Below, piece by piece: positions 3,734 through 30,030 of a stretch of DNA of 33,530 nucleotides. The stretch is from positions 1 through 33,530 of the forward strand of contig JAKAKE010000144.1 of assembly GCA_021824625.1 (NCBI GenBank), given 5' to 3'. This stretch comes from Bacteroidota bacterium (GTDB taxonomy: Bacteria > Bacteroidota > Ignavibacteria > Kapaibacteriales > UBA2268). Below the pieces are notes generated by a model. It ran no database searches and had not been told where the DNA came from. It was given only the letters and a program-made list of their open reading frames with translations. Position numbers and translations under genes: made by a program. Within the stretch, counting starts at the first letter, position 1. Every line of letters begins with the position of its first letter.

Positions 3734-3902
3734 CTATAAATATGCCGCAACTACGTTGCTCTTTCTTGTTACTATGGTTTCTTTTCTATAAATATGCCGC
3801 AACTACGTTGCTCTTTCTTGTTACTATGGTTTCTTTTCTATAAATATATCGCAACTATGTTGCTTTTCAAAATTGAATTGCGTAGCAATGACATATTTAT
3901 AA
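3734..3902. repeat. 52-bp tandem repeat plus inverted CTATAAATAT-type elements
   Basis: Two exact 52-bp units (3734-3785 and 3786-3837) each start CTATAAATATGCCGCAACTA and contain the small palindrome GCAACTACGTTGC. A third, diverged start at 3838 (CTATAAATATATCGCAACTA) is followed by an oppositely oriented element at 3878-3902 (TTGCGTAGCAATGACATATT plus TATAA). The 3838-3902 pair therefore has terminal inverted repeats. It belongs to the same family as elements near 16.9, 17.15 and 21.2-21.4 kb. It lies between the broken Kelch gene and meaB, a gap without genes. Confidence 0.85.
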
Positions 3903-3958: not shown

Positions 3959-5237
3959 TCACCTGCTAATCAACACCTTCGCTACTTCAACATAATTGTT
4001 TTGATGTGTTAAGAGAAAATATAATCCATTAGACAATCCGCTCACATCAATATTAATAATCGTATTATCACCATCAACAATCACATCTTCTTTTTCTAAT
4101 AATTTCTTTCCGAATATATCGTATAGTTGATTATCCAATTTACCTACATTATAGGATTTTATTTTCAGTTTATTTTCATTATCAGAAATTATATAAGAAT
4201 TGAAATTACCACTGGATGAATAGTATTCTTCTATGTATTCATTTGGTTGAAGTGTAAACAGCCAAGAATCATTATACAAAATTCCTTCTTTTCCATCAGC
4301 ACCTCCAAATAAAAAAATTCTATTTTCACCGAAATTGACAATACCATGTGCATATCTACCATCAGGTTTTATTGTTGTCTGAATATTTTGCCATGACGAA
4401 TCAACTAAATTAAATAGCCACATTTCATCATAATGGCCATAAGAATCATGATCTCCACCCCAAAAAACAACCTCATTCTTTCTAATATTTGCCATAGAAG
4501 AATTCACAATAATACCAGGGTTGGTTTTGGGTTCTATTTTAATCCATTTTTTTTTATAAAAATCAAAAAGCCAAGTTTCAACTAAATACCCGAATTGCCA
4601 ACCACCATAAAATAAAACTTTTTAAGAATCAATTTGTGCCATTATCGCTTCTTCGCAAGAAGGTGGTCTTTCATTATTATTAATTTGAATATAAGTCCAA
4701 TTATTTTCTTCTAAATTGTAGAAAAAAGTGTAGTTAACATAATCTCCAGCACCAATATCTCCACCAAATAATAATACTATATTATCTGAAATTTGCGATA
4801 ATACAAAATCATAAATTGGGGGGGGGCATGCTAGGTTTCATATCAGTCCAAGTAAGTGTTCCCAAATCGAAAACCCAAGTATCATTAATTATTTCAGAAT
4901 TATTGCTTTCAAAACTTTCACCACCAAATAAAAGAACTTTGTTTTTAGATATTCTAGCTATTTGATGGCCAATTCTCCTACTTGGATGAATGTCATTTTG
5001 AATTTCTGACCAGGAATTTAATTGGAAATCATAAATCCATGTTTCATCAAAAATCATTTTATCATTTTTACCACCAAAAAGAATTACTTTTTCTTCACCT
5101 ATTTCTGCCATTCCGAAAGACCATCTTGGAGATGGTGAATTTGTTGGTTTTAGTTCTTCCCAAATACCTGTTTGTGCATTTGAATAAAAAATTATTGAAA
5201 TAAAAAATAATAGTGACATTGATAATTTCTTTTTCAT
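3959..5237 (-). pseudogene. Secreted Kelch beta-propeller protein with T9SS sorting domain, disrupted
   Basis: Starting at ATG 5237, a signal peptide (MKKKLSMSLLFFISIIFYSNA) precedes Kelch repeats with hallmark motifs VILFGG, VLLFGG, VLLFGG, VLFYGG, VVFWGG and IFLFGG: six blades, one complete propeller. The C-terminus (DVSGLSNGLYFLLTHQ through KVLISR) is a T9SS type-A-like sorting domain. Two lesions break it. A G9 run at 4818-4826 (C9 on the coding strand) shifts the frame to a TGA at 4811-4809, and removing one C restores the frame. An in-frame TAA lies at 4624-4622, inside the fourth blade motif, where a Lys codon would fit. Repaired, the protein would be about 425 aa. It starts 6 bases after the scpA stop. 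It is either a recent pseudogene, a phase-variable gene, or carries sequencing errors. Confidence 0.85.
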
Positions 5238-16887: not shown

Positions 16888-16916
16888 CTATAAATATGGC
16901 GTTCCTACGGAACTTT
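16888..16916. repeat. CTATAAATAT-type palindromic element
   Basis: CTATAAATATGGCG followed by GTTCCTACGGAAC (stem GTTCC/GGAAC) and TTT. It forms the junction of the two aspS-end duplication units. The same ends with different stem sequences occur at 3734-3902, 17137-17166 and 21189-21419. Confidence 0.8.
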
Positions 16917-17136: not shown

Positions 17137-17166
17137 CTATAAATATGTTGTTCCTACGGAACTTTT
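17137..17166. repeat. CTATAAATAT-type palindromic element
   Basis: CTATAAATATGTT followed by GTTCCTACGGAAC and TTTT. It is the equivalent of the element at 16888-16916 and closes the second duplication unit. Confidence 0.8.
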
Positions 17167-17684: not shown

Positions 17685-20600
17685 ATGTTTAAGAAAATTA
17701 CTTATTTGGCAATTTCGATTGCTATGCTTCTATTAATGTCTTATGGAGAAGCAAAATCACAGGGTACGCCAATGCCTGTGCCAACTTACCAAACCTGGGG
17801 TGGGTATTATTATTATCTTTACGGTTATTTCTTCACTGCTCCGGTAAACTTCTGGATAGTCAGGGCAGAGGTTCTTGTAGGTCCCTCTACCGGTAACCAG
17901 AGCATTGAAATTTATCGAATGACCCAGAATCCATCATACTGTGGACAATTTTTTTGGGGACAAGCTAATTATCCTTATACGCCCGGACTTGTACCTCTTT
18001 GGTCAGTAAGAAACAGCAGTATAAGCGGGCCAATTAATATCAACCAGGGGTCTGCATACCCAAGCGGCACAATACAAGATATATATTGTACAGCCGGCAC
18101 TACTTATTATATTCACGGAAATAGAGCTAATTATTACAGTAGTATGGGGTCTTATGGTTATGGATTTAATTCCAGTATTGCTGGAATACCTGTCACTCTT
18201 TGGGGAGGATTCGTGTATAATTTTAACTATATGTATAACGGTTGGAGTGATTACGGATATATGTATAGAAACTGTTATTACTATGTAGGAAGAACACAGA
18301 TTTATTACATGCTTCCATGCTATATTTATGTTACTCAAACGACAGGCGGGACAATCGCTCCCGGAGCAACTTATGGGCCTTTCAAGCCGGGAACCAACGT
18401 CAATCTGGATTACACTGTAACACCGGTCTCGGGCAAGCATATCGTTGATGTTACATTAAACGGTGTAACTGTCGGCACAATTACAAGGCCTGTTCACACT
18501 CAGCATTTCGGGATTGTGAATACAACACAAACATTAAGTGCAACTTATGGCAACAAGATTGTTGCTACCGGTTATGGTGCATCACTGAATCCAACCGGTA
18601 CATCCTACTTTGTAACCGGCTCGAATCCGAGCTATCTTGCTACACCCTTCCCGGGTGCTTTTATATCAACAATTACTGCAACCGGTGATATAACCGGTGT
18701 TGTAAACGTTCCGGTTCTTAATGGCGGTGCGGGACAGACAATTGCTCTCGGTCAGCCGGGCTATCCTTTTGGTGGACTAAACGAAGACTGGACCTTGGAT
18801 GTTGTATGTATGATGAACCTGTTCACATCCGTTGAACCACACGGAACTATCAATCCGATTGGCTCGACCGATATTGTTTGGGGAACTCAATTCCCCGTTC
18901 AGATTTTACCTGATTTGAACTACAAAGTTAATAATTTGTATGTTGACGGGTTTGATGTTATGGACCCGACACTGCCGGGCTATCCGAAGCCGGGGCTCGA
19001 TTTAACGGCATGGCCCGTCGTTACATATACGATTGACATGTCCTATTCACATACGGTTCATGCCACATTCTTTGCATGGGAAATTACTCCCGAAGTTGTA
19101 GGTATCGGAGGTACAATTGAGCCTCCTGACCGTGTCAGAGTGGCTGAACATGGCCAGTATCCGTTTGTTGTAACTCCTGATTTGGATTACAGTATTGACT
19201 CTGTCAAAGCAATTAATTTATCAAACGGCAATGTTACTGTGGTTGGCAACATCCCTATTCATGGCGGATTACAATATCTGTTCCAAAACATTGTAAATGA
19301 CTGGAAACTTCAGGCATTATTTAAGATTGACAGGTTCAATGTCGTTGTCAAAAACTCACGTGTAATAGAAGGCGGCAAGATATTCCCGACAGGAACATTA
19401 AACCCTGCAAGCGATGATGGTTTGATAGTCGTTAATTCAGGCACAGACCTTAACTTCAAAATAACACCCGACATTGGCTGGAATACATCTGATGTTCTTC
19501 TTGATGGAGTAAGTCAGGGTGTGGTAACGGATCTGCCCTTAACAACAATCAGGGCTGACCACGAAGTTGAAGCCAGATTCCAGAGAATCAGCTTCACAAT
19601 TACTGCAACTGCAGGAAATCACGGGATGATTTCTCTCGAAGGATGGGAAGAACCTGTTCCGGCAAGTGGTGAATATCCTGCATTCTACGGAGAAAATGCG
19701 AGATTTCTTATTGCTCCCGACCATGGCTACAAGCTTAGTGAACTAAAGGTTGACGGTAATGTAAAAAATCCTGAACTTGAATACAGCTTCTATTATGTTA
19801 CGGATAACCACAGCATTACTGCATCATTTGTACCGATGAACAGGTACACAATAACCGCAACTGCAGGAACGGGCGGCACTATTTCACCTAACGGTGCAGT
19901 CAGCGTTGTCGAAGGTGACAACCAGGCATTTACTTTTACTCCGAATGCAGGCTATGAAATTGCAGATGTATTGATAGATGGGACCAGCGAAGGCCAGAGA
20001 ACAGATTATGAATTTACAAATGTTACGGCAGACCATACAATCGAAATCATTTTCAACCCGATTGTTACTTATGAAATACAATGCGAGTTTGTTTCGATGC
20101 AGTTGGTTTCCGGACAGCCTTTCGATATAAAGGTAATATGCGTTGACCAGGCAACACAACAGCCAATCAATCCTATTGCACCTATGAATGTTACAATATC
20201 TTACGCAGGAAACCAGGGAACTTTGTCAGGTACACTACAAGGTACAATACCGGCAAATGATAACAATGTTATAATTTCCGGCATAGTATTTACAAACAGC
20301 AGCGGCGAAGCAAATGTTAAGCTTATTTCAAGTGCATCAGGTTTGAAAGACTGCAACTTGACAGCAAACTTCCTTGCACCTGAACCGTTGACACAAGATG
20401 GAAATATTCAGTTCACCAATGCACAAACTTATTACAATAAAGAAGGAATTGCATTAACAAAGGCAACATTAGTCTGGACAGCCGGTGACGGCACGAAGAG
20501 ACTGTTGGTATTCTCAACGAGTCCAATCACTTCAGCCGAATATCCTAAGGATGGAAGCAGTTATACACCAAATACAACTTATGGAAGCGGTGATGCGATT

Positions 20601-21059
20601 GGAGGAGCCTTTGTCGTATTCAGTAATACCGGTAATACTGTTGATGTGGATAATCTTGATTCAGGTACTGTGTATTATGTCCGTCTATTTGGATTTAACG
20701 GTGACTTATCATTAGCAAATTATAATACAAACGAAGGAACCGGTAATCCTTATGACTTCCCGTTTACAGATGTCGAGGATACATATATTGCAAACGGATT
20801 CCAGGTAACACCTATATCGCCAAACCCGGCATTCTTTGATATTATGTTCAATCTCAATGTAAGCACAGCATCTGCGTTTACAATCGAGGTGGCAGACCTT
20901 CAGGGAAGAATAGTCGCCGGCTACTGCAATAAGAAATTCTATGATTATGGAAATTACCATGTTGCAATACCTGTAACGAAGCTTGCTTCCGGCTCGTATA
21001 TACTCAAGATATACAACGGAACAGACTTTGCATACCAGATATTCACAATCGTTCGCTAA
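17685..21059 (+). CDS. Large secreted protein with InlB-like B-repeats and T9SS sorting domain
   Basis: A 1124-aa exported protein. A signal peptide (MFKKITYLAISIAMLLLMSYGEAKS) is followed by a Tyr/Gly-rich, Cys-containing region to about residue 205 that I do not recognise. About seven repeats of 80-90 aa follow (residues about 211-791) with the divergent InlB B-repeat pattern, clearest in YTITATAGTGGTISPNG, FTFTPNAGYEIADVLIDG and VTADHTIEIIFNP. Then come an Ig-like region (about 795-905, VSGQPFDIKVICVDQATQQP), an FnIII-like region (about 906-1030, KRLLVFSTSP, SGTVYYVRLFGFN) and a C-terminal T9SS type-A-like domain (ISPNPAFFDIMFNL through IFTIVR). It is probably an outer-surface adhesin or structural protein. 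It has a strong ribosome binding site and a strong terminator. Confidence 0.85.
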   Translation: MFKKITYLAISIAMLLLMSYGEAKSQGTPMPVPTYQTWGGYYYYLYGYFFTAPVNFWIVRAEVLVGPSTGNQSIEIYRMTQNPSYCGQFFWGQANYPYTPGLVPLWSVRNSSISGPININQGSAYPSGTIQDIYCTAGTTYYIHGNRANYYSSMGSYGYGFNSSIAGIPVTLWGGFVYNFNYMYNGWSDYGYMYRNCYYYVGRTQIYYMLPCYIYVTQTTGGTIAPGATYGPFKPGTNVNLDYTVTPVSGKHIVDVTLNGVTVGTITRPVHTQHFGIVNTTQTLSATYGNKIVATGYGASLNPTGTSYFVTGSNPSYLATPFPGAFISTITATGDITGVVNVPVLNGGAGQTIALGQPGYPFGGLNEDWTLDVVCMMNLFTSVEPHGTINPIGSTDIVWGTQFPVQILPDLNYKVNNLYVDGFDVMDPTLPGYPKPGLDLTAWPVVTYTIDMSYSHTVHATFFAWEITPEVVGIGGTIEPPDRVRVAEHGQYPFVVTPDLDYSIDSVKAINLSNGNVTVVGNIPIHGGLQYLFQNIVNDWKLQALFKIDRFNVVVKNSRVIEGGKIFPTGTLNPASDDGLIVVNSGTDLNFKITPDIGWNTSDVLLDGVSQGVVTDLPLTTIRADHEVEARFQRISFTITATAGNHGMISLEGWEEPVPASGEYPAFYGENARFLIAPDHGYKLSELKVDGNVKNPELEYSFYYVTDNHSITASFVPMNRYTITATAGTGGTISPNGAVSVVEGDNQAFTFTPNAGYEIADVLIDGTSEGQRTDYEFTNVTADHTIEIIFNPIVTYEIQCEFVSMQLVSGQPFDIKVICVDQATQQPINPIAPMNVTISYAGNQGTLSGTLQGTIPANDNNVIISGIVFTNSSGEANVKLISSASGLKDCNLTANFLAPEPLTQDGNIQFTNAQTYYNKEGIALTKATLVWTAGDGTKRLLVFSTSPITSAEYPKDGSSYTPNTTYGSGDAIGGAFVVFSNTGNTVDVDNLDSGTVYYVRLFGFNGDLSLANYNTNEGTGNPYDFPFTDVEDTYIANGFQVTPISPNPAFFDIMFNLNVSTASAFTIEVADLQGRIVAGYCNKKFYDYGNYHVAIPVTKLASGSYILKIYNGTDFAYQIFTIVR

Positions 21060-21083
21060 TTCCCATAACGGGATAATATTAAT

Positions 21084-21118
21084 GCGGGCTGAACTTCTGT
21101 TCAGCCCGCTTTTTTTTT
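21084..21118 (+). terminator. Rho-independent terminator after the 1124-aa gene
   Basis: A perfect 11-bp stem, GCGGGCTGAAC (21084-21094) and GTTCAGCCCGC (21099-21109), with a TTCT loop and nine T. It lies 24 bases beyond the stop codon and is the strongest terminator in the window. Confidence 0.93.
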
Positions 21119-21140
21119 GGTCGAAATAAATTTAATGTAC

Positions 21141-21368
21141 GGGATATGCCGTCAATATAAGACTCGATTTATTTTTGTATTTAATTTTCTATAAATATAC
21201 CATCCCTACGGGATTCAAAAAAAAATAGCACCGTAGGTGCGGCATATTTATAAAATGGGATATGCCGTCAATATAAGACTCGATTTATTTTTGTATTTAA
21301 TTTTCTATAAATATACCATCCCTACGGGATTCAAAAAAAAATAGCACCGTAGGTGCGGCATATTTATA
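21141..21368. repeat. Two 116-base direct repeats of an inverted-repeat element
   Basis: 21141-21252 and 21257-21368 are identical over 112 bases (offset 116). Each contains CTATAAATATACCATCCCTA with the stem ATCCC/GGGAT (21189-21216, 21305-21332), an A-rich centre, and an opposite element GCACCGTAGGTGC plus GGCATATTTATA (21228-21252, 21344-21368). The outer ends are inverted (CTATAAATAT versus ATATTTATA), giving a MITE- or BIME-like design with two different stems. Confidence 0.88.
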
Positions 21369-21393
21369 GCAATGAAAATGTCCAGCGATACAG

Positions 21394-21419
21394 AGCTCAA
21401 TATGAGCGTCATATTTATA
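21394..21419. repeat. Diverged CTATAAATAT-type element, minus orientation
   Basis: AGCTCAATATGAGC followed by GTCATATTTATA. The end is that of the family, but the stem is GCTC/GAGC. A related AGCTCCATTTGAGCGGCATA lies at 17031-17050 in the second aspS-end unit. Confidence 0.65.
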
Positions 21420-21433
21420 TAATGGTGCTATTC

Positions 21434-24400
21434 TTATCTTTCAATAATAATTGCCTGCCTTTGAATGGCAAGTCCATTTGTTATTTCAATAAAATAAACA
21501 CCTGATGGAATATCAACAGGAGACCAATTAATTCGATGACTGCCTTTATTTAAAAATCCCGTGAAAATATTATTAACTCTTTCACCAAGAAGATTGATTA
21601 AATTAAATTCAATATGCGAATCTTTATCAATCAAAACCTCAAAATTACCGGTTTCATTAACAGGATTTGGAAATATAAATATTTTGAAGCCACCCAATAA
21701 ATTTGTCTCATCAACACTGTTGAATTTGTCAGTAGTGAATTTCCATGTATTTGACCAATCGGTTGTTCCGGCGGTATTGGACGCACTAACGTGCCAGTAG
21801 TAATCGGTTTCAAATTTAAGATTAGAGTAGTAAATGGATGTGCCTGGAACGGAAGATACATCAATTGCTTTTGTCGAGAAATCATTAAACTCCGATAGCT
21901 GTGCATTATAACTATCTGCACCGGGTATTGATTGCCATGTTAGCAAACCGTTAGCCATGATTTTAATTGCATTTTGTGCGGGAGAAATCAGCGATGGTGT
22001 GGCTATTCTTGTTGTAAAAACCCATACATCCGACCATTCGCCCGTTCTGTCAGAATTTTTACCTGCTACCCTCCAGTAAAACTTAGTATTATTATCGAGA
22101 TTGTAATATTTATAAGTTGTATCGGTAATGCTATTATCATTGATAACTACCGGATTGAAATCTGCGGATTTTGAAATTTGCAGATTGTAATTTGCAGCAC
22201 CATTAACCGGCTTCCAAACCAGGGTGTCGCTAACGTGTACAAAATTATTGCCATTGGGAGGAGCCGATAATAATGGCGGTGAAAGTGAAGTTGAAAAATT
22301 CCATATAGATGACCAGTTGCTCCAGGCCGTCCCTTTCTTTGCCCTTATTTGCCAATAATATTTGGTATTATTTTTTAGGCTGCTGTAATTATATGAATTT
22401 GCAGTTAATGTCGAATCATTAATAAGATTGGTACTGAAGTCTTGAGTTGTTGATAATCTTATGTGATATAAACTTGAACCGTTAAGTATATTCCACCGAA
22501 ATTCAACGATTAACGGAATACCGCTTTCATTGTTTTGGGGAAACAATAATGTTGGAGCATCGAATGATGTTGTAAAAGTCCCTGTTGATGACCATTCACC
22601 GGTGTTGTTCGTTGATTTCCCGCTTACTTTCCAGTAATATAGGTTGTTTTTTTTCAATCCTCTGTAATTATAGCTTGTACCTGTCAAAGTAGAATCGTTA
22701 ACATTCGTTGGTGAGAAATCCACATTCTCCGAAAGCATCAATTTGTATAATGCGGCTCCCGATACTGTATTCCATATTAATAATCCGCTGTCAGGGCTTA
22801 CAGTTTCATCATTAATTGGTGAAACAAGGGTAGGAGGAGCAAGTTGGGTTGTGAAATCTCTTGCCAAAGACCAGTAGCCGTCACCATCCGAATTATGGGC
22901 AGAAACCTGCCAATAATATTTAGTATTATTAACCAATCCGCTATAACTTTGACTAACGCCTGGAATTTCCGTTTGGTTAATTGAGGTTGTATTGAATGTA
23001 ATATCTGTGGAAACCTGTAAATTAAAATTCTGAGCCTGATTGACACTTAGCCATTCAAACGTTCCGCTGGCGGGAACACCCGTTGAATGATCCGCAGGTG
23101 AAAGTAAGACGGGTGCCGCAAGAATCGTTGTGAAATCCCAAGCCGGAGACCAGTTGCTAATGTCATAGTCATTTATCGAACTCACTCTCCAAAAATATAC
23201 TGTCCCGAATTCAAATCCGCGAAATATAAAGAAAGTATCTGTAACATTGGACTGGTCATAAATGTTAACTGAAAAATCAGGAAATCTCGATATTTGCACC
23301 CTGTAACTATTTGCTATTGGATTTTTATTCCATGAAACATAACTGCTGTCCGGTACTCTTTTAGTATGATTTAGCGGAGAAAACAACAGAGGCGGGCCAA
23401 CTTTCGTACTGAAATTCCAGACATCCGACCATTGCCCTGTACCGCCCGGATTTGATGCATTTACCCGCCAATAATATTTACTGCTTGGGCTTAAAGCATC
23501 AATATCACTTGTTGTTCCCGTTATATTTAATATATTCTTTATGATGTTCGAAAAGCCGGGTGTGTCCGATACCTGCAAGCTATATGTATCGGCTCCGTAA
23601 ACCGATGACCAGCTTAGAGTCAGGCTTGTATCCTGAGAATGGGCATTATTAACGGGAGAAACAAGAGTGGGGCTGTCAAGGCTAATTCTGAAATTCCAAA
23701 TAGCGGACCAATCGCTCGTATCAATGGCAGAATGAGTTTTCACACGCCAGTAATACCTTATACCATGCGATAAGGGAGCAGATATTTGATAAGCCGTGTC
23801 AGTCAATCCTGTCAGATTTATTAATGGCGATGACACATCCGATTGGGTGGAAATTTGTAAATCGTAAGTTAATGCATCGTTGCTTTTGTACCATACAACC
23901 AGGGGAGTGGTATTAATTCCATCAGCACCGTTTACCGGTAATTTAAGTGTAGGAGGCATCACTCCGAAGCCGATTTTAAATGAGATGGTAGCAGCTGCTG
24001 AACTAACATCATACAAAATCAAACCTCCATTGTTACCATTGTATAGGAAGCATGAGGGATTTGTAGCATCGTTGATGGCAGTTCTGCCTACATCCGCACT
24101 CAAGTGCGCCTGGTTGATATTGCCGTTAGCACTTGGTGTTCCGTTTACTCTATAAATATATACCTCATCGGGAGGGCCTTCCTGGTTACCGTTTCCGGCG
24201 TCGGTTTTTATTCTATAAACAATAAGTCCCGAACCCGGCACCGAACTCTCAAAGGTACCTGTTTTTCTTCTGTATTCTACAACAAAATACTCGGTGGTAG
24301 AAAAAGGCGAATTAATCCTAAAGCAATTATTTGTTGATGAGGTAAGAGGATTCAACTGATAAGTACCTGATGTTGTTATGAGAGGTATTGAAGAAATCCA

Positions 24401-25513
24401 ATTCCCATATTTATATTTCATAAAGGCACCCATATGCTCCGGCGGGTCCAAATCATATTCCATAATATCCCAATAACCTACAGGCGTCTTACCGTCATAT
24501 CCGTAATGATATAGGTCGGGAGCGCCGAATGTATGGAACATTTCATGGCTCAAAACCCCGGCATCAACGACAGTTTGGAGCTGAAGGTTATAATTCCAAA
24601 CGACCTTGCTGTTTATCGTTACATTATATGAAAATAAACTCCATTTATGGGGCCAGAGCAGGTCAGACCAGCCACCCGGTGCACCATAAACGACAAAACA
24701 AACATTATCAACAAAACCATCTCCGTCGAAATCAATATTTAGTCCGGTAGGTATCTGCGATTTTACTGCGTTCACAGCATCTTTTAATAATGTATGTTCA
24801 CGTGCAGTTCTTTCATTACTGTTATTATAACCAATTGTATTGTTGACCGGGTGGTATGGTTTATAATAATTCCTGACGTGGCTGTCCTTATATGATAAAA
24901 CCGTTGCCCCGGGAATCGGATAATAAGTTGAGTTCACAGTTACAGAGTTATAGGAGGCTTCTAAATAATAAGCCTTCATCGAAGCTTTATCAGTAGCATT
25001 GAACATATCATTATATGTGCTGATTGGGTCGGTAAACTCAGATTCATCGTTAAATCTGATGAAAACGACTAAGTTATTAATATTACCGGTTACTTGTATG
25101 GTTTCGGATTTTTCCTTTTTGCCCGGTTTTTGTGCTGCCTGATTAAACAGCTTAGCCTTTTCATAGATTGTTTCCGGGGCTATTGTCAGCCATTTTTCAA
25201 TACCAAGTTTATCGGGGTCAATCGTTCCGACAATTTTATTGCTTGAAACAAGTTCATCGTTTACTTTATCAGCGTAAACATAATAGCCTGTTTTTTGGTC
25301 GGCAATAATTGTATAGCCATCCTTGTCATGCAGCCAGTTGTAATACTCATCACCGCTTGCAAAGCAATGGACAATCGTACCGTTAGGCTGTGTTATTGTT
25401 TGAGGAACATTACGAAGATATGCGGCATTCGAAATAATTGATGCGGCAATTGTTAAATGTATTATATATGATATAAATCTAAAATTCCTGATTAAACCTG
25501 AAGTACTAAACAT
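21434..25513 (-). CDS. M6-family metalloprotease with eight FnIII-like repeats and T9SS sorting domain
   Basis: I use ATG 25513 (1359 aa) because GGGAGG lies 10 bases upstream; the frame extends only to a TTG. A signal anchor/peptide (FISYIIHLTIAASIISNAA) precedes a propeptide-like region. The catalytic domain has FDGDGFVDN, a Ca-loop-like motif near 262-270, zinc motif HEMFHTFGAPD with the first HExxH at about 323-327, and a Met-turn-like YWDIMEYD near 347-354. It resembles immune inhibitor A-type M6 peptidases. Eight repeats of about 92 aa follow (about 520-1265), each with PxLxSPxN, YxLQxS and YYWRVxA...W.FTT features. The protein ends in a T9SS type-A-like domain (IFPNPVNETG through AIIIER). 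It is probably a secreted or surface protease; substrate unknown. Confidence 0.9.
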   Translation of the reverse strand: MFSTSGLIRNFRFISYIIHLTIAASIISNAAYLRNVPQTITQPNGTIVHCFASGDEYYNWLHDKDGYTIIADQKTGYYVYADKVNDELVSSNKIVGTIDPDKLGIEKWLTIAPETIYEKAKLFNQAAQKPGKKEKSETIQVTGNINNLVVFIRFNDESEFTDPISTYNDMFNATDKASMKAYYLEASYNSVTVNSTYYPIPGATVLSYKDSHVRNYYKPYHPVNNTIGYNNSNERTAREHTLLKDAVNAVKSQIPTGLNIDFDGDGFVDNVCFVVYGAPGGWSDLLWPHKWSLFSYNVTINSKVVWNYNLQLQTVVDAGVLSHEMFHTFGAPDLYHYGYDGKTPVGYWDIMEYDLDPPEHMGAFMKYKYGNWISSIPLITTSGTYQLNPLTSSTNNCFRINSPFSTTEYFVVEYRRKTGTFESSVPGSGLIVYRIKTDAGNGNQEGPPDEVYIYRVNGTPSANGNINQAHLSADVGRTAINDATNPSCFLYNGNNGGLILYDVSSAAATISFKIGFGVMPPTLKLPVNGADGINTTPLVVWYKSNDALTYDLQISTQSDVSSPLINLTGLTDTAYQISAPLSHGIRYYWRVKTHSAIDTSDWSAIWNFRISLDSPTLVSPVNNAHSQDTSLTLSWSSVYGADTYSLQVSDTPGFSNIIKNILNITGTTSDIDALSPSSKYYWRVNASNPGGTGQWSDVWNFSTKVGPPLLFSPLNHTKRVPDSSYVSWNKNPIANSYRVQISRFPDFSVNIYDQSNVTDTFFIFRGFEFGTVYFWRVSSINDYDISNWSPAWDFTTILAAPVLLSPADHSTGVPASGTFEWLSVNQAQNFNLQVSTDITFNTTSINQTEIPGVSQSYSGLVNNTKYYWQVSAHNSDGDGYWSLARDFTTQLAPPTLVSPINDETVSPDSGLLIWNTVSGAALYKLMLSENVDFSPTNVNDSTLTGTSYNYRGLKKNNLYYWKVSGKSTNNTGEWSSTGTFTTSFDAPTLLFPQNNESGIPLIVEFRWNILNGSSLYHIRLSTTQDFSTNLINDSTLTANSYNYSSLKNNTKYYWQIRAKKGTAWSNWSSIWNFSTSLSPPLLSAPPNGNNFVHVSDTLVWKPVNGAANYNLQISKSADFNPVVINDNSITDTTYKYYNLDNNTKFYWRVAGKNSDRTGEWSDVWVFTTRIATPSLISPAQNAIKIMANGLLTWQSIPGADSYNAQLSEFNDFSTKAIDVSSVPGTSIYYSNLKFETDYYWHVSASNTAGTTDWSNTWKFTTDKFNSVDETNLLGGFKIFIFPNPVNETGNFEVLIDKDSHIEFNLINLLGERVNNIFTGFLNKGSHRINWSPVDIPSGVYFIEITNGLAIQRQAIIIER

Positions 25514-25797
25514 TTCTATGCCGCCTCCCAATCAATGGCTGAATATTTAATGAATAATAAATTTGCTTTCCCAACACCTAATCTTTGTATAATTTTATTT
25601 TAAACGGATTGAAACTCTAATTATTGGTATATATGCAATCCTTAATAATTTTTTCGGATAAAAAAATAAGAAAAAATATTTTGTTTTCAAATAAGAAAAT
25701 TTTACATTAATCGTCTGGCAAAAAGATGTGATAAATTAAAACTCTGTGAATTGAAATTCATGGCTGATAAAATGATTTTAAAGTTAAATCAAATTAT
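25514..25797. other. Divergent promoter region of two giant secreted-protein genes
   Basis: 284 AT-rich bases between the divergent protease and 1410-aa genes. I find no exact TAnnTTTG box on either strand; near misses with shifted spacing (TAATCTTTG at 25579-25587) exist. No repeat of the families seen elsewhere occurs here. Confidence 0.5.
25524..25529 (-). promoter_or_regulatory. Ribosome binding site GGGAGG deciding the protease start
   Basis: Minus-strand GGGAGG at 25529-25524 lies 10 bases before ATG 25513. It sits inside the longer TTG-started frame, so the ATG is preferred. Confidence 0.65.
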
Positions 25798-28700
25798 ATG
25801 AGAAATTTGTACTCGATAATAAAAATATTACTTTTAACATTTTTACCTCTGGCTTCTTACTCACAGTCATGGAATAAAGTGAGTACAATTCCTCCGCCTT
25901 ACAACTCAAACTATTGGCTTGATGTTTTCTTTTTACCTTCTAACCCTGATTATGGCTGGATATGCGGGTATAGGGGACAGGTCATCAGGACAAGCGATAG
26001 AGGCAAAACCTGGGCAGGTGCAATAGTTCCATTTGCCGACCATCTTGAAAGCATACACTTTACTTCACCAACCGTAGGATATACATCAGGAGTCCAAGGT
26101 ATATTCAAATCAACAAATGGAGGAGCCTCATGGAGGGATATTACTCCACCCAATGCTTTTACTCTTTGGGGTTGTTATTTTCTTAATGACAACTATGGAA
26201 TTACTGCCGGTGAAGGTTGCCAGGGAACACAAAAATTCTTTCTTACAACAAACGGTGGGGCAAACTGGACTTTATTTATTGATTCGGTACCAAATTCGGG
26301 TATGACCGACATCATGCTCTATCCGTCAGGACTGGGGTATGGTGCAAGCAGCGGTAAAATCTGGATTACTAACGATTCCGGGGCAACATGGAGTGTTTAT
26401 CTGACATCGGGGGCTAATATCTGGCAGGAAGAAATAACTAACATAGGGCCTTCATTTCTTGTTCCTGTCGCAGGAACTTCTTGTTCAGGGCAAGGCAATA
26501 GCGGCGGTATGCACTTTACAACAAACGACGGAGCGTCTTGGAATAGTTTCTCAACACTTTACCCAATGTTCGGAACTTTTCTTATTTCTCAGAATACTGG
26601 CTGGGCTTGCGGATTTAACCGGGAAGTCTATTATACATCAAACGGCGGACAGACTTGGCTCATCCGTAACTGCGGCATAGACAACGGCAATCTGGATGAT
26701 TTATGGTTCATCACTCCAAACGAAGGCTGGGTTGTCGGTGAAGGTGTTTATTACCTCGGTCCTGACAGGCAGGACGTTACAAGGTTGAACATGGTCTTTG
26801 GGGATGTTTGCCTCCCTGGTTCAAAGTATGACACTTTATGGGTGAAAAACCATTCATTCAATAATGCAGTGATGGTTGCAACAAATCTTTACGGTGTTAA
26901 TTTTGAGGATTTTAATATTGTTTATCCCCCGGGCGGATTTCCGGTTACTGCCTGCGATTCTCAGATGGTTATTGTTCAATTTAAACCCCTAAATGCCGCT
27001 GATAACAAAAATGCTAAACTTGATATAAATGTAATCGGTGGAAATAATTTCACAATTGACCTTCTGGGGAATGGTAAAAATATGACAACCGTACCTGAAG
27101 ATTCCTTGCTCGAAATTAATCCCGCATATTGCGGCATGACAACAGTTGATTCATTGAAATGGACTGCCTCCAGCCCCGACAACAAAATTATATCTATTCA
27201 AAAAATTGAGGGCAGTTATGAAATAGTATCTGAATCGCCGCCCCCAATCAATGTTTATACTATTGGAGTATATACATATTTCTCTGCATCTCCTTCCGAT
27301 ACAGGCTTGTTTACATCAAGGTTTAAATTTACAATTTCACCATGCTCAAAAGATACAATTATCACTGTTACAGCTTATGGTGTATCACCGATAATAACGG
27401 CTGAAGACAGAATATTGTTTAACCTCAATTGCAAATTATCAGAACTGGACACTATACCTGTATATAATACAGGAAACAGCGAACTGATTATTTCCGATTA
27501 TTATTTCAATACCACAAACACTGCCTTTGCGTATATAGGCTGGACAAGCGGCAGAACTCTGCCTTTAACGGTTAATCCGCTTGAAGCAGACTCTTTGATT
27601 ATTAAGTATGAACCGCCAATAAGCGGCTCACATAGTGCCGTTTTATACCTGATTAATAATGATTCAACTTCTATTCGTGGAAGAAAAAATCCTTTTTATA
27701 TCTCATTCAACGGTATCGTTACATCGACCGATATTAAACCAAAAGATACGGTCTTGAATCTGAATGATATTTGCCTTGGAGATTCGACAATACTCAATGT
27801 ACCGATGAAAAACAAAGGTGATTTAACGGCAATAGTGCAAAATCCGATTTATGATAACACTGTTTATAGAATTTCAGTTCAGGGAAAATCATTCCCGTTC
27901 CAGATGAAAACAAATGATTCGGTTAATTGCCGGATAGCTTTTAAACCAGTCACTGCACGACAATATAGTGATACAATTTATATCTATACTCTGCCGTGCA
28001 ATGAAATTATGAGAATAGTTATTAATGCAAACTGCGTTGATTCATACATCACTGCTGAACCCGATTCAATCACAGGTGTAATTCAAACAGGATTGCCTTT
28101 GAGAAAAACTGTAACCGTTCATGCTTTTGGCAATATTCCAATGAGCATAACCGATATAAAATTTAATCCTCTGAGACCTGATTGGACAGTCACTGCATCA
28201 CCGGCTTTGCCATATAATATTAATGCAGGCGACAGTGTGGATTTTACAATTGATTTCACCTCAACACGCGATACAATTCTGAACAGCAGGCTGGTATTCA
28301 GACTTGACAGCTACTGCCCGATGGAAACGGGTTTACCTGTTAATATATCAAGCCACAGCGTCTGGCTCCTGACTTCTGCCGACTCTATAGGATTCGGGTA
28401 CAGTAAATGCACTGCAGGTATTATATACGATACGCTTACGATTACAAATTCCGGTTCACTGGAGGATACATTAATCAATCTTGAGATACAGCCGCCGGTA
28501 ATCCCTTTTAATATTGTGAACATGCCTGCGCTTCCCCACATCTTGCCTTCAGGTGCAGTTGAAGAGTATATAATAGCTTTTGATTCATCTGTCGAAGGAA
28601 TTTTCACCGGTAAACTTGTGATTGATACTAAGAATTTAAGAGGATTGCCAATTAATCTTCCTTTGTCGGGAGAATTCAGGAAAGTTCTGACTACTCCCGA

Positions 28701-30030
28701 TGCAGTCAATTTTGATTATTCAAATGTCGAGCCATGCAATGACACAATTATAAAAACATTTTATATTAAAAATACCGGCACAATTGCGGATTCTCTTACT
28801 ATCAGCAGAACCGAAAATCAGCTGGGATTTGAAATTATCCCATCTGCAAATCTTGCAATTCCATCCGGTGACAGTTCGCTGATTTCTGTTTTGCTAATTC
28901 CTTCAATGTTTAGTGTCGAAGGAACATTCAGTGAAAAATTTATTCTAAACAGCACAGTTTGTCCGAACACACATACAGTTGATGCATCGGTAAATATCAT
29001 CAAGCCAAGACTAACAATTGACCCGATGAAACTTGACTTTGGAAATGTCTGGATTGATGATTCACTCTTAAAATATATTGACATAAGAAATGAAAGTAAT
29101 ATCAATAAGAGTGTAACTAATCTTGCGATTATTCCTTCCTCCTTGCAATTTAAATTTAATGCTAAGTTTCCGCTTAATCTTGCACCAAATGACTTTGTCA
29201 GAATACCGTTAATCTTTACTTCCAGGACTGAAGGAAAAGAACAATGCCGCTTTGAATTAATCGAAGAATCAATTTGCATTGATACAAGCTATGTCGAACT
29301 GACGGGAAACGTTCCGCCTGAAGTATATAATACATCGGTGAAAATCGGCAACTACAGGGCTGAACCGGGCGACACTATCACTATTGAAGTGGAGTTGCTC
29401 GATGAAATTCCGAGAGTAAAACCTGACCGGCTCGATTTTGCATTATCTTTTGATAAAATGTTGTTCTATCCATTGAGGGTGCTGGCAAAATTCAGAAACT
29501 CAAGACAACCTGTTAATTACAAATATTATCCCGATACATTAAAGATGTCAATAGATAAACAATATTCGGAACTTCTCTTTCAGGAATCCGGAAATATTAT
29601 TTTTATCGAGGGTATGGTGCTGAAATACTATCCCGATTCAACGGGACTTTTCATAACAAAATTCAATCCTGTAACTAATAAAGTTGTAAATGTCAGCAAA
29701 ATTGACGGCTCGCTCAAAGCATTGAATATTTGCCCTGCAACAGGAGGCCTCTTAATCGAGCTTGTAAACAACCTTAAGTTAAGCCTCGATGAAACTGTTA
29801 TCAGTACAGGCCATTTGAAAATTGAGGTTTTAATTCCCGAAGAACAGGCAATTACTATTGAAATCTGGGATATGATGGGTAACAGGGTACACAATGAAAA
29901 AATCATAATTAAAAATGACAGCAGGTCATTCGATATAGACGTTTCAAATTTATCAAATGGAGCATATATCCTAACCATTAAATCAGACAAGTATTATTCT
30001 GCAAGAAATAAATTCATTATAATCCGCTAA
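25798..30030 (+). CDS. Giant secreted protein: Ycf48/BNR propeller, Ig-like repeats, cohesin-like domain, T9SS domain
   Basis: A 1410-aa exported protein. The signal peptide (MRNLYSIIKILLLTFLPLASYS) is followed by an Ycf48/BNR-like propeller (about 24-330) with repeated motifs such as GWICGYRGQVIRTSDRGKTW, GIFKSTNGGASW, FFLTTNGGANW and REVYYTSNGGQTW. Residues about 340-1165 hold many Ig-like units of choice-of-anchor D/ASH type, with recurring motifs such as DSTILNVPMKNKG, DTLTITNSGSLED and FDYSNVEPCNDTIIKTFYIK. A cohesin-like strand set follows at about 1171-1310 (VKIGNYRAEPGDTITIEVEL), and a T9SS type-A-like domain ends the protein (SNLSNGAYILTIKS through KFIIIR). It is probably a surface or secreted scaffold. 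No enzyme motif is seen. Confidence 0.85.
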   Translation: MRNLYSIIKILLLTFLPLASYSQSWNKVSTIPPPYNSNYWLDVFFLPSNPDYGWICGYRGQVIRTSDRGKTWAGAIVPFADHLESIHFTSPTVGYTSGVQGIFKSTNGGASWRDITPPNAFTLWGCYFLNDNYGITAGEGCQGTQKFFLTTNGGANWTLFIDSVPNSGMTDIMLYPSGLGYGASSGKIWITNDSGATWSVYLTSGANIWQEEITNIGPSFLVPVAGTSCSGQGNSGGMHFTTNDGASWNSFSTLYPMFGTFLISQNTGWACGFNREVYYTSNGGQTWLIRNCGIDNGNLDDLWFITPNEGWVVGEGVYYLGPDRQDVTRLNMVFGDVCLPGSKYDTLWVKNHSFNNAVMVATNLYGVNFEDFNIVYPPGGFPVTACDSQMVIVQFKPLNAADNKNAKLDINVIGGNNFTIDLLGNGKNMTTVPEDSLLEINPAYCGMTTVDSLKWTASSPDNKIISIQKIEGSYEIVSESPPPINVYTIGVYTYFSASPSDTGLFTSRFKFTISPCSKDTIITVTAYGVSPIITAEDRILFNLNCKLSELDTIPVYNTGNSELIISDYYFNTTNTAFAYIGWTSGRTLPLTVNPLEADSLIIKYEPPISGSHSAVLYLINNDSTSIRGRKNPFYISFNGIVTSTDIKPKDTVLNLNDICLGDSTILNVPMKNKGDLTAIVQNPIYDNTVYRISVQGKSFPFQMKTNDSVNCRIAFKPVTARQYSDTIYIYTLPCNEIMRIVINANCVDSYITAEPDSITGVIQTGLPLRKTVTVHAFGNIPMSITDIKFNPLRPDWTVTASPALPYNINAGDSVDFTIDFTSTRDTILNSRLVFRLDSYCPMETGLPVNISSHSVWLLTSADSIGFGYSKCTAGIIYDTLTITNSGSLEDTLINLEIQPPVIPFNIVNMPALPHILPSGAVEEYIIAFDSSVEGIFTGKLVIDTKNLRGLPINLPLSGEFRKVLTTPDAVNFDYSNVEPCNDTIIKTFYIKNTGTIADSLTISRTENQLGFEIIPSANLAIPSGDSSLISVLLIPSMFSVEGTFSEKFILNSTVCPNTHTVDASVNIIKPRLTIDPMKLDFGNVWIDDSLLKYIDIRNESNINKSVTNLAIIPSSLQFKFNAKFPLNLAPNDFVRIPLIFTSRTEGKEQCRFELIEESICIDTSYVELTGNVPPEVYNTSVKIGNYRAEPGDTITIEVELLDEIPRVKPDRLDFALSFDKMLFYPLRVLAKFRNSRQPVNYKYYPDTLKMSIDKQYSELLFQESGNIIFIEGMVLKYYPDSTGLFITKFNPVTNKVVNVSKIDGSLKALNICPATGGLLIELVNNLKLSLDETVISTGHLKIEVLIPEEQAITIEIWDMMGNRVHNEKIIIKNDSRSFDIDVSNLSNGAYILTIKSDKYYSARNKFIIIR

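What the first reader, a model, noticed from the sequence alone, without database searches (positions are those of the whole stretch)
17685..30030. Three consecutive giant T9SS cargo genes covering 12 kb
Three proteins of 1124, 1359 and 1410 aa with different middle domains (B-repeats; M6 protease with FnIII-like repeats; propeller plus Ig-like repeats) share similar C-terminal sorting domains and lie side by side in alternating orientation. With the Kelch gene there are four T9SS cargos in 33 kb. They may form a surface assembly, for example an adhesin, its processing protease and a scaffold.
Basis: inference. Interest (0 to 1): 0.5.

Follow-up and report, generated by a model that had tools for sequence, protein, structure and literature searches.

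The report
Three neighbouring secreted surface-protein genes
Three large neighbouring genes encode proteins that carry the export tag used to send proteins to the cell surface of an Ignavibacteria-type bacterium; they stay near each other within the genus but only one is found widely, so they look like ordinary separate surface proteins inherited as neighbours rather than parts of one machine.

Summary
Three intact ORFs (1124, 1359, 1410 aa) lie at 17685-30030 in +,-,+ order, each with a T9SS type A tail above the Pfam and NCBIfam cut-offs. The fourth cargo, a Kelch gene, is broken in this assembly. The genome has at least 150 such tails; triples this close are near chance (13 seen, 8.2 expected).

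The trio is nevertheless inherited: in 3 of 3 congeners AspRS lies within 2 kb of a P0001 copy and P0002-P0003 are divergent neighbours. The P0001-P0002 junction is direct in one congener and inferred in a second from group II intron halves at contig ends. P0002-P0003 are also paired in a sister genus, with a 38-bp conserved island between them.

An assembly is not shown. P0003 (Ycf48-like propeller, HYDIN-type Ig chain, cohesin-like module, 16 invariant cysteines) is near full length in 28 of 40 genomes; 23 of those lack P0001, and 16 of the 23 show no M6-covering P0002 match. M6 relatives of P0002 occur unlinked elsewhere. No dockerin passes its cut-off. Most likely these are three independently acting cargos, the last two possibly co-regulated. 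New member of a known kind; modest interest.

The parts
17685..21059 (+). P0001, 1124 aa: Tyr-rich N-terminal region (by eye), divergent InlB B-repeats, T9SS type A tail; adhesin-like
20814..21026 (+). T9SS sorting tail of P0001
21084..21109 (+). terminator-like hairpin (11 pairs, 8 GC) plus T run after P0001
   Evidence: in G003 a similar hairpin is followed by the likely 5' end of a group II intron
21130..21425 (.). intergenic repeats: 116-bp unit twice (96% identical) with ATAAATATRCC...CTACGG palindromes
21434..25513 (-). P0002, 1359 aa from ATG (1365 aa from TTG at 25531): M6 metalloprotease, FnIII-like repeats, T9SS tail
24212..25069 (-). M6 protease domain of P0002 (residues 155-440 in 1365-aa numbering)
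   Evidence: TIGR03296 E 2.1e-40, 139.4 bits against cut-off 110.8
24533..24547 (-). HExxH zinc motif HEMFH (residues 329-333)
   Evidence: H329, E330, H333 invariant in the 10 rows aligned
21446..21676 (-). T9SS sorting tail of P0002
25679..25716 (.). 38-bp island conserved in the P0002/P0003 divergent intergenic region; candidate promoter or operator
   Evidence: 34-36 of 38 identical between congeners against 51-72% in the rest of the alignment
25798..30030 (+). P0003, 1410 aa: Ycf48-like propeller, about 8 HYDIN-type Ig domains (count by eye), cohesin-like module, T9SS tail
25867..26742 (+). Ycf48-like propeller of P0003 (residues 24-315); most conserved part
   Evidence: PF14870 E 9.7e-10; mean pairwise identity 0.54 and 42 invariant columns in 23 orthologues
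26773..29301 (+). HYDIN / choice-of-anchor-D Ig-like chain of P0003 (residues 326-1168; boundaries set by eye)
29326..29718 (+). cohesin-like module of P0003 (residues 1177-1307)
   Evidence: profile of 23 orthologues matches cohesins 1g1k (3.4e-6) and 2vn5 (4.3e-6)
29806..30021 (+). T9SS sorting tail of P0003
15005..16771 (+). aspartyl-tRNA synthetase (named by eye from the sequence, no family search); synteny anchor upstream of P0001
3959..5237 (-). broken Kelch cargo gene (two ORFs, 142 and 182 aa)
   Evidence: one-frame relative L108:14443-15735

Best explanation
These are three separate T9SS cargo genes that sit together by descent in one genus; they do not encode a dedicated machine. Each protein would leave through Sec by its N-terminal signal (inferred from sequence), cross the outer membrane through the SprA translocon, lose its C-terminal tail and stay on or near the surface (pathway recalled from work on other bacteria). 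P0001 would be an adhesin-like filament of B-repeats that has extra copies and recombines in the congeners. P0002 would be an active zinc metalloprotease of family M6 held on a chain of FnIII-like domains. P0003 would be a disulfide-stabilised rod of HYDIN-type Ig domains that displays a strongly constrained Ycf48-like propeller head, and it is an old surface protein of the order. P0002 and P0003 may be expressed from a shared divergent regulatory region.
For: Tails over the cut-offs. SprA over its cut-off in the same genome, in pieces on two contigs. At least 150 tails, and triples near chance frequency. Genus-level synteny. P0003 near full length in 28 of 40 genomes, 23 of them without P0001 and 16 of those without an M6-covering P0002 match. 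In a class sample of 197 genomes P0003 is near full length in 28 of the 34 listed order-level genomes, plus one split at contig ends. Across 23 P0003 loci no neighbour family except P0002 (5 loci) recurs in more than 3 loci; one same-genus pair shares its whole neighbourhood. M6 zinc motif invariant in the 10 rows aligned. Propeller identity 0.54 against 0.24-0.34 for the Ig domains, and 16 invariant cysteines in 23 rows. Conserved 38-bp intergenic island.
Against: P0001 and the closest form of P0002 occur in the same 5 genomes and stay linked in the genus, as a functional unit would. P0003 has a cohesin-like module, often a protein-binding one (binding role recalled). In G021 another FnIII-type cargo lies directly upstream of P0003 (28% identical to the FnIII half of P0002), so this kind of neighbour may recur. 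In G013 the M6 relative and P0003 both stop at contig ends and could be neighbours. Four of the five linked genomes are one genus, so linkage may reflect recent ancestry only. Expression, secretion and tail cleavage were not tested.
Confidence: 0.62

Rival explanations
1. A dedicated surface assembly: P0001 the adhesin, P0002 its processing protease, P0003 the scaffold that holds them.
For: Genus-wide linkage, and P0001 and the closest form of P0002 in the same 5 of 40 genomes; cohesin-like module in P0003; conserved divergent intergenic island.
Against: P0003 occurs without P0001 in 23 of 28 genomes; P0001 is not beside P0002 in G015 and has further copies away from this locus in G001, G002 and G003; no dockerin over the cut-off; cargo triples are near chance frequency.
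Confidence: 0.13
2. A P0002-P0003 functional pair only: the M6 protease and the propeller rod are co-expressed from a shared divergent promoter and act together, while P0001 is a bystander.
For: Pair adjacent in 5 of 5 genomes with the closest form of P0002, across two genera; 38-bp island 34-36 of 38 identical between congeners against 51-72% in the rest; possibly also adjacent in G013 (contig ends).
Against: M6 relatives of P0002 and P0003 are not adjacent in G022, G018, G007 and G010, the last with an M6/FnIII relative covering residues 23-1267; the island may serve P0003 alone; in G015 it is only 27-29 of 38 identical.
Confidence: 0.22
3. Chance placement: the neighbours mean nothing, because cargo genes are so dense that triples are expected and genus-level linkage is recent ancestry. 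This overlaps with the best explanation, so the odds do not add to one.
For: 13 triples against 8.2 expected, P 0.09; five consecutive cargos at C143.
Against: The trio stays in place while nearby genes moved: relatives of the two small genes downstream of P0003 in the window lie in G002:C47, about 4 kb from the relative of the window's first gene (91-1200), not beside P0003.
Confidence: 0.35

Closest known systems
T9SS type A sorting-domain cargos (TIGR04183 / PF18962)
   Same: All three tails score over both cut-offs; SprA is in the genome
   Different: Nothing in the tails sets them apart; at least 147 others occur in this genome
M6 family metalloproteases (TIGR03296; immune inhibitor A type)
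   Same: Domain over the cut-off, HExxH motif invariant in the 10 rows aligned
   Different: Pfam's Peptidase_M6 model is under its cut-off (17.5 of 22); carries a long FnIII-like chain and a T9SS tail
Ycf48/HCF136 photosystem II assembly propellers
   Same: Propeller of P0003 matches PF14870 and, by profile, solved Ycf48 chains (8am5, 1.2e-16)
   Different: T9SS cargo with Ig chain; the full-length Ycf48 model PRK13684 is far under its cut-off (45.5 of 326)
HYDIN / choice-of-anchor D Ig domains (NF012200)
   Same: 100.7 bits against cut-off 45; HYDIN is the top PDB match by profile and ciliary central-apparatus chains lead the fold search
   Different: Bacterial surface context; TM-scores of the fold matches are low (0.18-0.34 by query length in the first 21 rows)
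Cellulosomal cohesin / scaffoldin
   Same: Residues 1177-1307 match cohesins by profile (3.4e-6)
   Different: One module only, no dockerin over the cut-off in the genome, low-confidence model there
InlB B-repeat adhesins (Flg_new_2, PF18998)
   Same: 37.1 bits against cut-off 23.6
   Different: T9SS tail; no solved relative by profile up to E 0.01

Membership tests
T9SS type A cargo | C-terminal sorting domain over curated cut-off | tested here: met
   PF18962 and TIGR04183 for all three
T9SS type A cargo | T9SS translocon in the genome | tested here: met
   TIGR04189 SprA over cut-off, fragments on C123 and C49; other components not searched
T9SS type A cargo | N-terminal Sec signal peptide | tested here: inconclusive
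   hydrophobic N-termini seen by eye; no signal predictor was run
T9SS type A cargo | secretion and cleavage of the tail | not testable with these tools
   needs proteomics
M6 metalloprotease | M6 domain over cut-off | tested here: met
   TIGR03296 139.4 of 110.8; Pfam Peptidase_M6 17.5 of 22, not over
M6 metalloprotease | HExxH zinc motif | tested here: met
   H329 E330 H333 invariant in 10 rows, from 10 of the 14 genomes with an M6-covering match
Ycf48 photosystem II factor | full-length Ycf48 model | tested here: not met
   PRK13684 45.5 of 326 bits; fold family only, PF14870 38.6 of 27
cellulosome scaffoldin | cohesin module | tested here: inconclusive
   profile match 3.4e-6 to 1g1k; no Pfam cohesin match up to E 0.1; model mostly under pLDDT 70 there
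cellulosome scaffoldin | partner dockerins in the genome | tested here: not met
   PF00404: no match over cut-off, best 15.2 of 22.9
T9SS attachment complex (PorU/V/Q/Z) | identity to PorZ or PorU | not tested
   considered from memory because PorZ has propellers; no search was run
group IIC intron at G003 junction | group II intron RNA and position after an intrinsic terminator | tested here: inconclusive
   RF00029 at L083 17-93 over threshold; contigs C6 and C45 run from a terminator-like hairpin into a GTGTGCC start, recalled as a group II 5' end, for which Rfam gave no match; subclass not tested; terminator preference seen in passages of PMC4424553

The most novel reading that the evidence does not exclude
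P0003 and its shorter paralogue (785 aa at G000:C223) are the core surface pair of this order: T9SS-exported rods that both display the same strongly constrained Ycf48-like head, and the long one also carries a cohesin-like docking module. The head would bind one conserved partner (glycan, secretion-complex part or other cargo), making P0003 a general surface hub to which lineage-specific cargos such as P0001 and P0002 attach.
Probability: 0.12. Interest if true: 0.55.

Novelty: new member of a known kind. Interest (0 to 1): 0.25.

Why it matters
The trio as such changes little. It shows that adjacent T9SS cargos are expected in a genome this rich in them, so adjacency alone is weak evidence for an assembly. 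The useful by-product is P0003: in the 23 orthologues aligned it keeps one length (1394-1433 aa) and 16 invariant cysteines, with a head domain far better conserved than the rest, which makes it a sensible target for asking what these bacteria show on their surface. It is not unique in breadth: a control M1-peptidase cargo has matches in all 40 genomes searched, many of them partial.

Tried and rejected
Obligate assembly: rejected as the main reading because P0003 occurs without P0001 in 23 of 28 genomes, and in 16 of those no M6-covering P0002 match was listed at E up to 1e-60. Cellulosome-like docking: no dockerin over the cut-off. Chance alone: overlaps with the main reading; not adopted because the block persists in the genus.

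Order-only family: my note said P0003 is full length only in the order. Checked again, one search also shows four genomes of another family of the class (G042, G052, G061, G070) with open frames of 1554-1617 aa covered in two stretches (about 270-300 bits each), so a diverged form exists outside the order. My note ('at least 30 of 40') is wrong: the recount is 28.

Repeats as cargo markers: ATAAATATRCC...CTACGG repeats flank cargo genes on C40, C39 and C223, but on C6 and C68 lie between genes that do not look like cargos (by eye, no family search). The 38-bp island was sought in the 139 sequences held (1.26 Mb, overlapping loci included). Outside the P0002/P0003 intergenic regions of the five genomes only matches with 7 or more mismatches to its 26-base core appeared; the reversed core gave 10 matches, best 6 mismatches.

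P0003 N-terminal model (residues 1-860) failed: mean pLDDT 35.6 with a 4-row alignment, so the propeller rests on profiles alone. The C-terminal model (850-1410) had mean pLDDT 67 and pTM 0.39; its first fold matches are ciliary central-apparatus chains at low TM-score. P0001 has no solved relative by profile up to E 0.01. G013: contigs C360 and C413 end at the starts of the M6 relative and of P0003, without overlap. The sigma-70-type scan was at its shuffled background (50 found, mean 53.2).

Controls: a 739-aa cargo is a multi-copy family (matches in 27 of 40 genomes); a 683-aa M1-peptidase cargo has matches in 40 of 40. So order-wide relatives are not special to P0003. Only these two control cargos were tried.

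Papers: Ignavibacteria with type IX secretion 4 papers, group II intron with IIC and terminator 23, Kapabacteria with T9SS 1, choice-of-anchor D with sorting domain 0, Ycf48 with Bacteroidetes 0, T9SS/cargo/gene cluster/cohesin 1, a five-term T9SS search 8. I saw listings with starts of abstracts, plus passages of PMC4424553 and PMC6247017; no paper was read whole.
Full report
WHAT IS THERE. The three ORFs are as described: P0001 17685-21059 + (1124 aa), P0002 21434-25531 - (1359 aa from ATG, 1365 from TTG) and P0003 25798-30030 + (1410 aa). P0001 has divergent InlB B-repeats (PF18998, 37.1 bits, cut-off 23.6). P0002 has an M6 protease domain (TIGR03296, 139.4 bits, cut-off 110.8) and FnIII-like repeats. 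P0003 has a YCF48-type propeller (PF14870, 38.6 of 27), choice-of-anchor-D / HYDIN Ig domains (NF012200, 100.7 of 45) and, by profile, a cohesin-like module. All three tails pass the Pfam and TIGR04183 cut-offs. The genome encodes SprA over its cut-off, split over contigs C123 and C49. The fourth cargo, the Kelch gene, is broken in this assembly by a frame change at a run of C and an in-frame stop; a 430-aa relative with one open frame exists in G001.

IS THE CLUSTER MORE THAN CHANCE? The genome (3.58 Mb, 231 contigs) gave 150 tails above the cut-off; only 150 of 222 candidates were scored, so this is a lower bound. With 150 tails placed uniformly on an unbroken genome, 8.2 triples within 8,992 bp are expected; 13 were seen (P = 0.09). 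The Poisson P for 4 or more in a 33.5-kb window is 0.054. Contig C143 has five consecutive same-strand cargo genes in 7 kb. The cluster itself is therefore unremarkable.

THE ORGANISM. NCBI places the first in phylum Ignavibacteriota.

CONSERVATION OF THE TRIO. 40 genomes were searched (own plus 39 relatives). P0001 is near full length in 5 (G000-G003, G015); G016 and G022 have only C-terminal matches. P0002 matches over at least 80% in one stretch in the same 5. M6-covering matches occur in 9 more genomes (G005, G007, G010, G012, G013, G014, G018, G021, G022); the one in G010 covers residues 23-1267 at 41%. P0003 matches over at least 80% in one stretch in 28 (counted from its list); 23 of these lack P0001, and 16 of the 23 have no M6-covering match. 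P0002 and P0003 are divergent neighbours in the 5. AspRS lies 0.7-1.9 kb from a P0001 copy in the window and in 3 of 3 congeners; ORFs of at least 80 aa intervene in G001 (one) and G003 (two), and the P0001 copy is cut by a contig end in G001 and G002. The P0001-P0002 junction is seen directly in the window and in G002:C24, where a P0001 C-terminal part is convergent with P0002. In G002 the end of C47 (AspRS-P0001) overlaps the starts of C24 and of C91 by exactly 141 bases, which fits P0001 copies sharing an identical stretch, perhaps in tandem. In G003, contig C86 starts with group II intron sequence (RF00029) just beyond P0002, and contig C6 runs from a terminator-like hairpin after P0001 into a GTGTGCC sequence, as does C45 at another P0001 copy. 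The simplest reading is an intron sitting between P0001 and P0002. Class C introns insert after terminators (passages of PMC4424553), but the subclass was not tested. In G001 the contigs end near the junction and do not decide it. In G015 P0001 is not beside P0002. In G013 the M6 relative and P0003 both stop at contig ends. P0001 has further copies or pieces in G001, G002 and G003, one copy in the window's genome and one in G015.

REGULATION. The 266-bp P0002/P0003 intergenic region holds a 38-bp island (25679-25716) that is 34-36 of 38 identical between congeners, against 51-72% in the rest of that alignment. In G015 it is 27-29 of 38 identical, against 44-50%. It was not found elsewhere in the sequences held. 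It may be a promoter or operator for one gene or both; the sigma-70-type scan of the region was at its shuffled background.

P0003 IN DETAIL. 23 of the 28 long orthologues were aligned; G005, G013, G026, G033 and G035 were left out. Lengths are 1394-1433 aa. Mean pairwise identity is 0.54 in the propeller, 0.24-0.34 in the Ig domains and 0.21 in the tail. 16 cysteines are invariant (domain boundaries set by eye). A class sample of 197 genomes gave near full-length matches in 28 of the 34 order-level genomes listed, and one more split at contig ends; 5 of the 34 have only a propeller match. Outside the order 10 genomes matched at E up to 1e-80; in four of them (G042, G052, G061, G070) two stretches together cover most of the profile in open frames of 1554-1617 aa, a diverged form. 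A shorter family (785 aa in G000) shares the propeller at 46%. Across 23 P0003 loci, P0002 is a neighbour in 5; other families recur in at most 3 loci, except that the same-genus pair G027/G036 shares its neighbourhood. In G021 an FnIII-type cargo lies just upstream of P0003.

MECHANISM. Shown by sequence: tails, translocon, M6 motif, Ig and propeller homology, linkage. Inferred: Sec export, T9SS passage, tail removal, surface display, disulfides, protease activity, adhesin role. I judge three independent cargos most likely. A P0002-P0003 pair is the best rival with a mechanism, and the full assembly is less likely, because the widespread P0003 does not need the other two.

VERDICT. Observation confirmed, interpretation partly supported. 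New members of known kinds; modest interest.

Noticed in passing
window 3736-3808, 16890-16910, 17139-17159, 21130-21425; also G000 contigs C6, C39, C68, C142, C223: Interspersed and tandem palindromic repeats (often about 51-bp units, ATAAATATRCC...CTACGG core); 26 pattern matches with up to 2 mismatches in G000, 0-8 in each of 23 relatives, none with the reversed control pattern. On C142 more than ten related copies stand in tandem.
   Followed up: partly
window 3959-5237: Kelch-type T9SS cargo gene broken by a frame change at a run of C and an in-frame stop, so pseudogene or assembly error; a one-frame relative exists in G001.
   Followed up: partly
L083 17-93; L106 and L105 first bases (G003): Group II intron sequence beside P0002, and intron-like starts after P0001-family terminators, at contig ends of the congener G003.
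   Followed up: partly
L039, L082, L107 (G002:C91, C24, C47): P0001 copies share an identical 141-base stretch at contig ends while two of their C-terminal parts are 78% identical overall, suggesting recent recombination among copies.
   Followed up: partly
L116 3-7031 (G000:C143): Five consecutive same-strand T9SS cargo genes, three of the four junctions overlapping by 4 bases, operon-like.
   Followed up: no
L109 6680-9037 (G000:C223): 785-aa protein sharing the P0003 propeller at 46%, with a T9SS tail match below the Pfam cut-off (19.5 of 27). Of 34 order-level genomes listed, 26 have both a near full-length P0003 and a propeller-only match, a 27th has both with P0003 split, 5 only the propeller match and 2 only P0003.
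   Followed up: partly
G000:C136 (L117 919-2970): M1-peptidase T9SS cargo with matches in 40 of 40 genomes, used as a control.
   Followed up: partly
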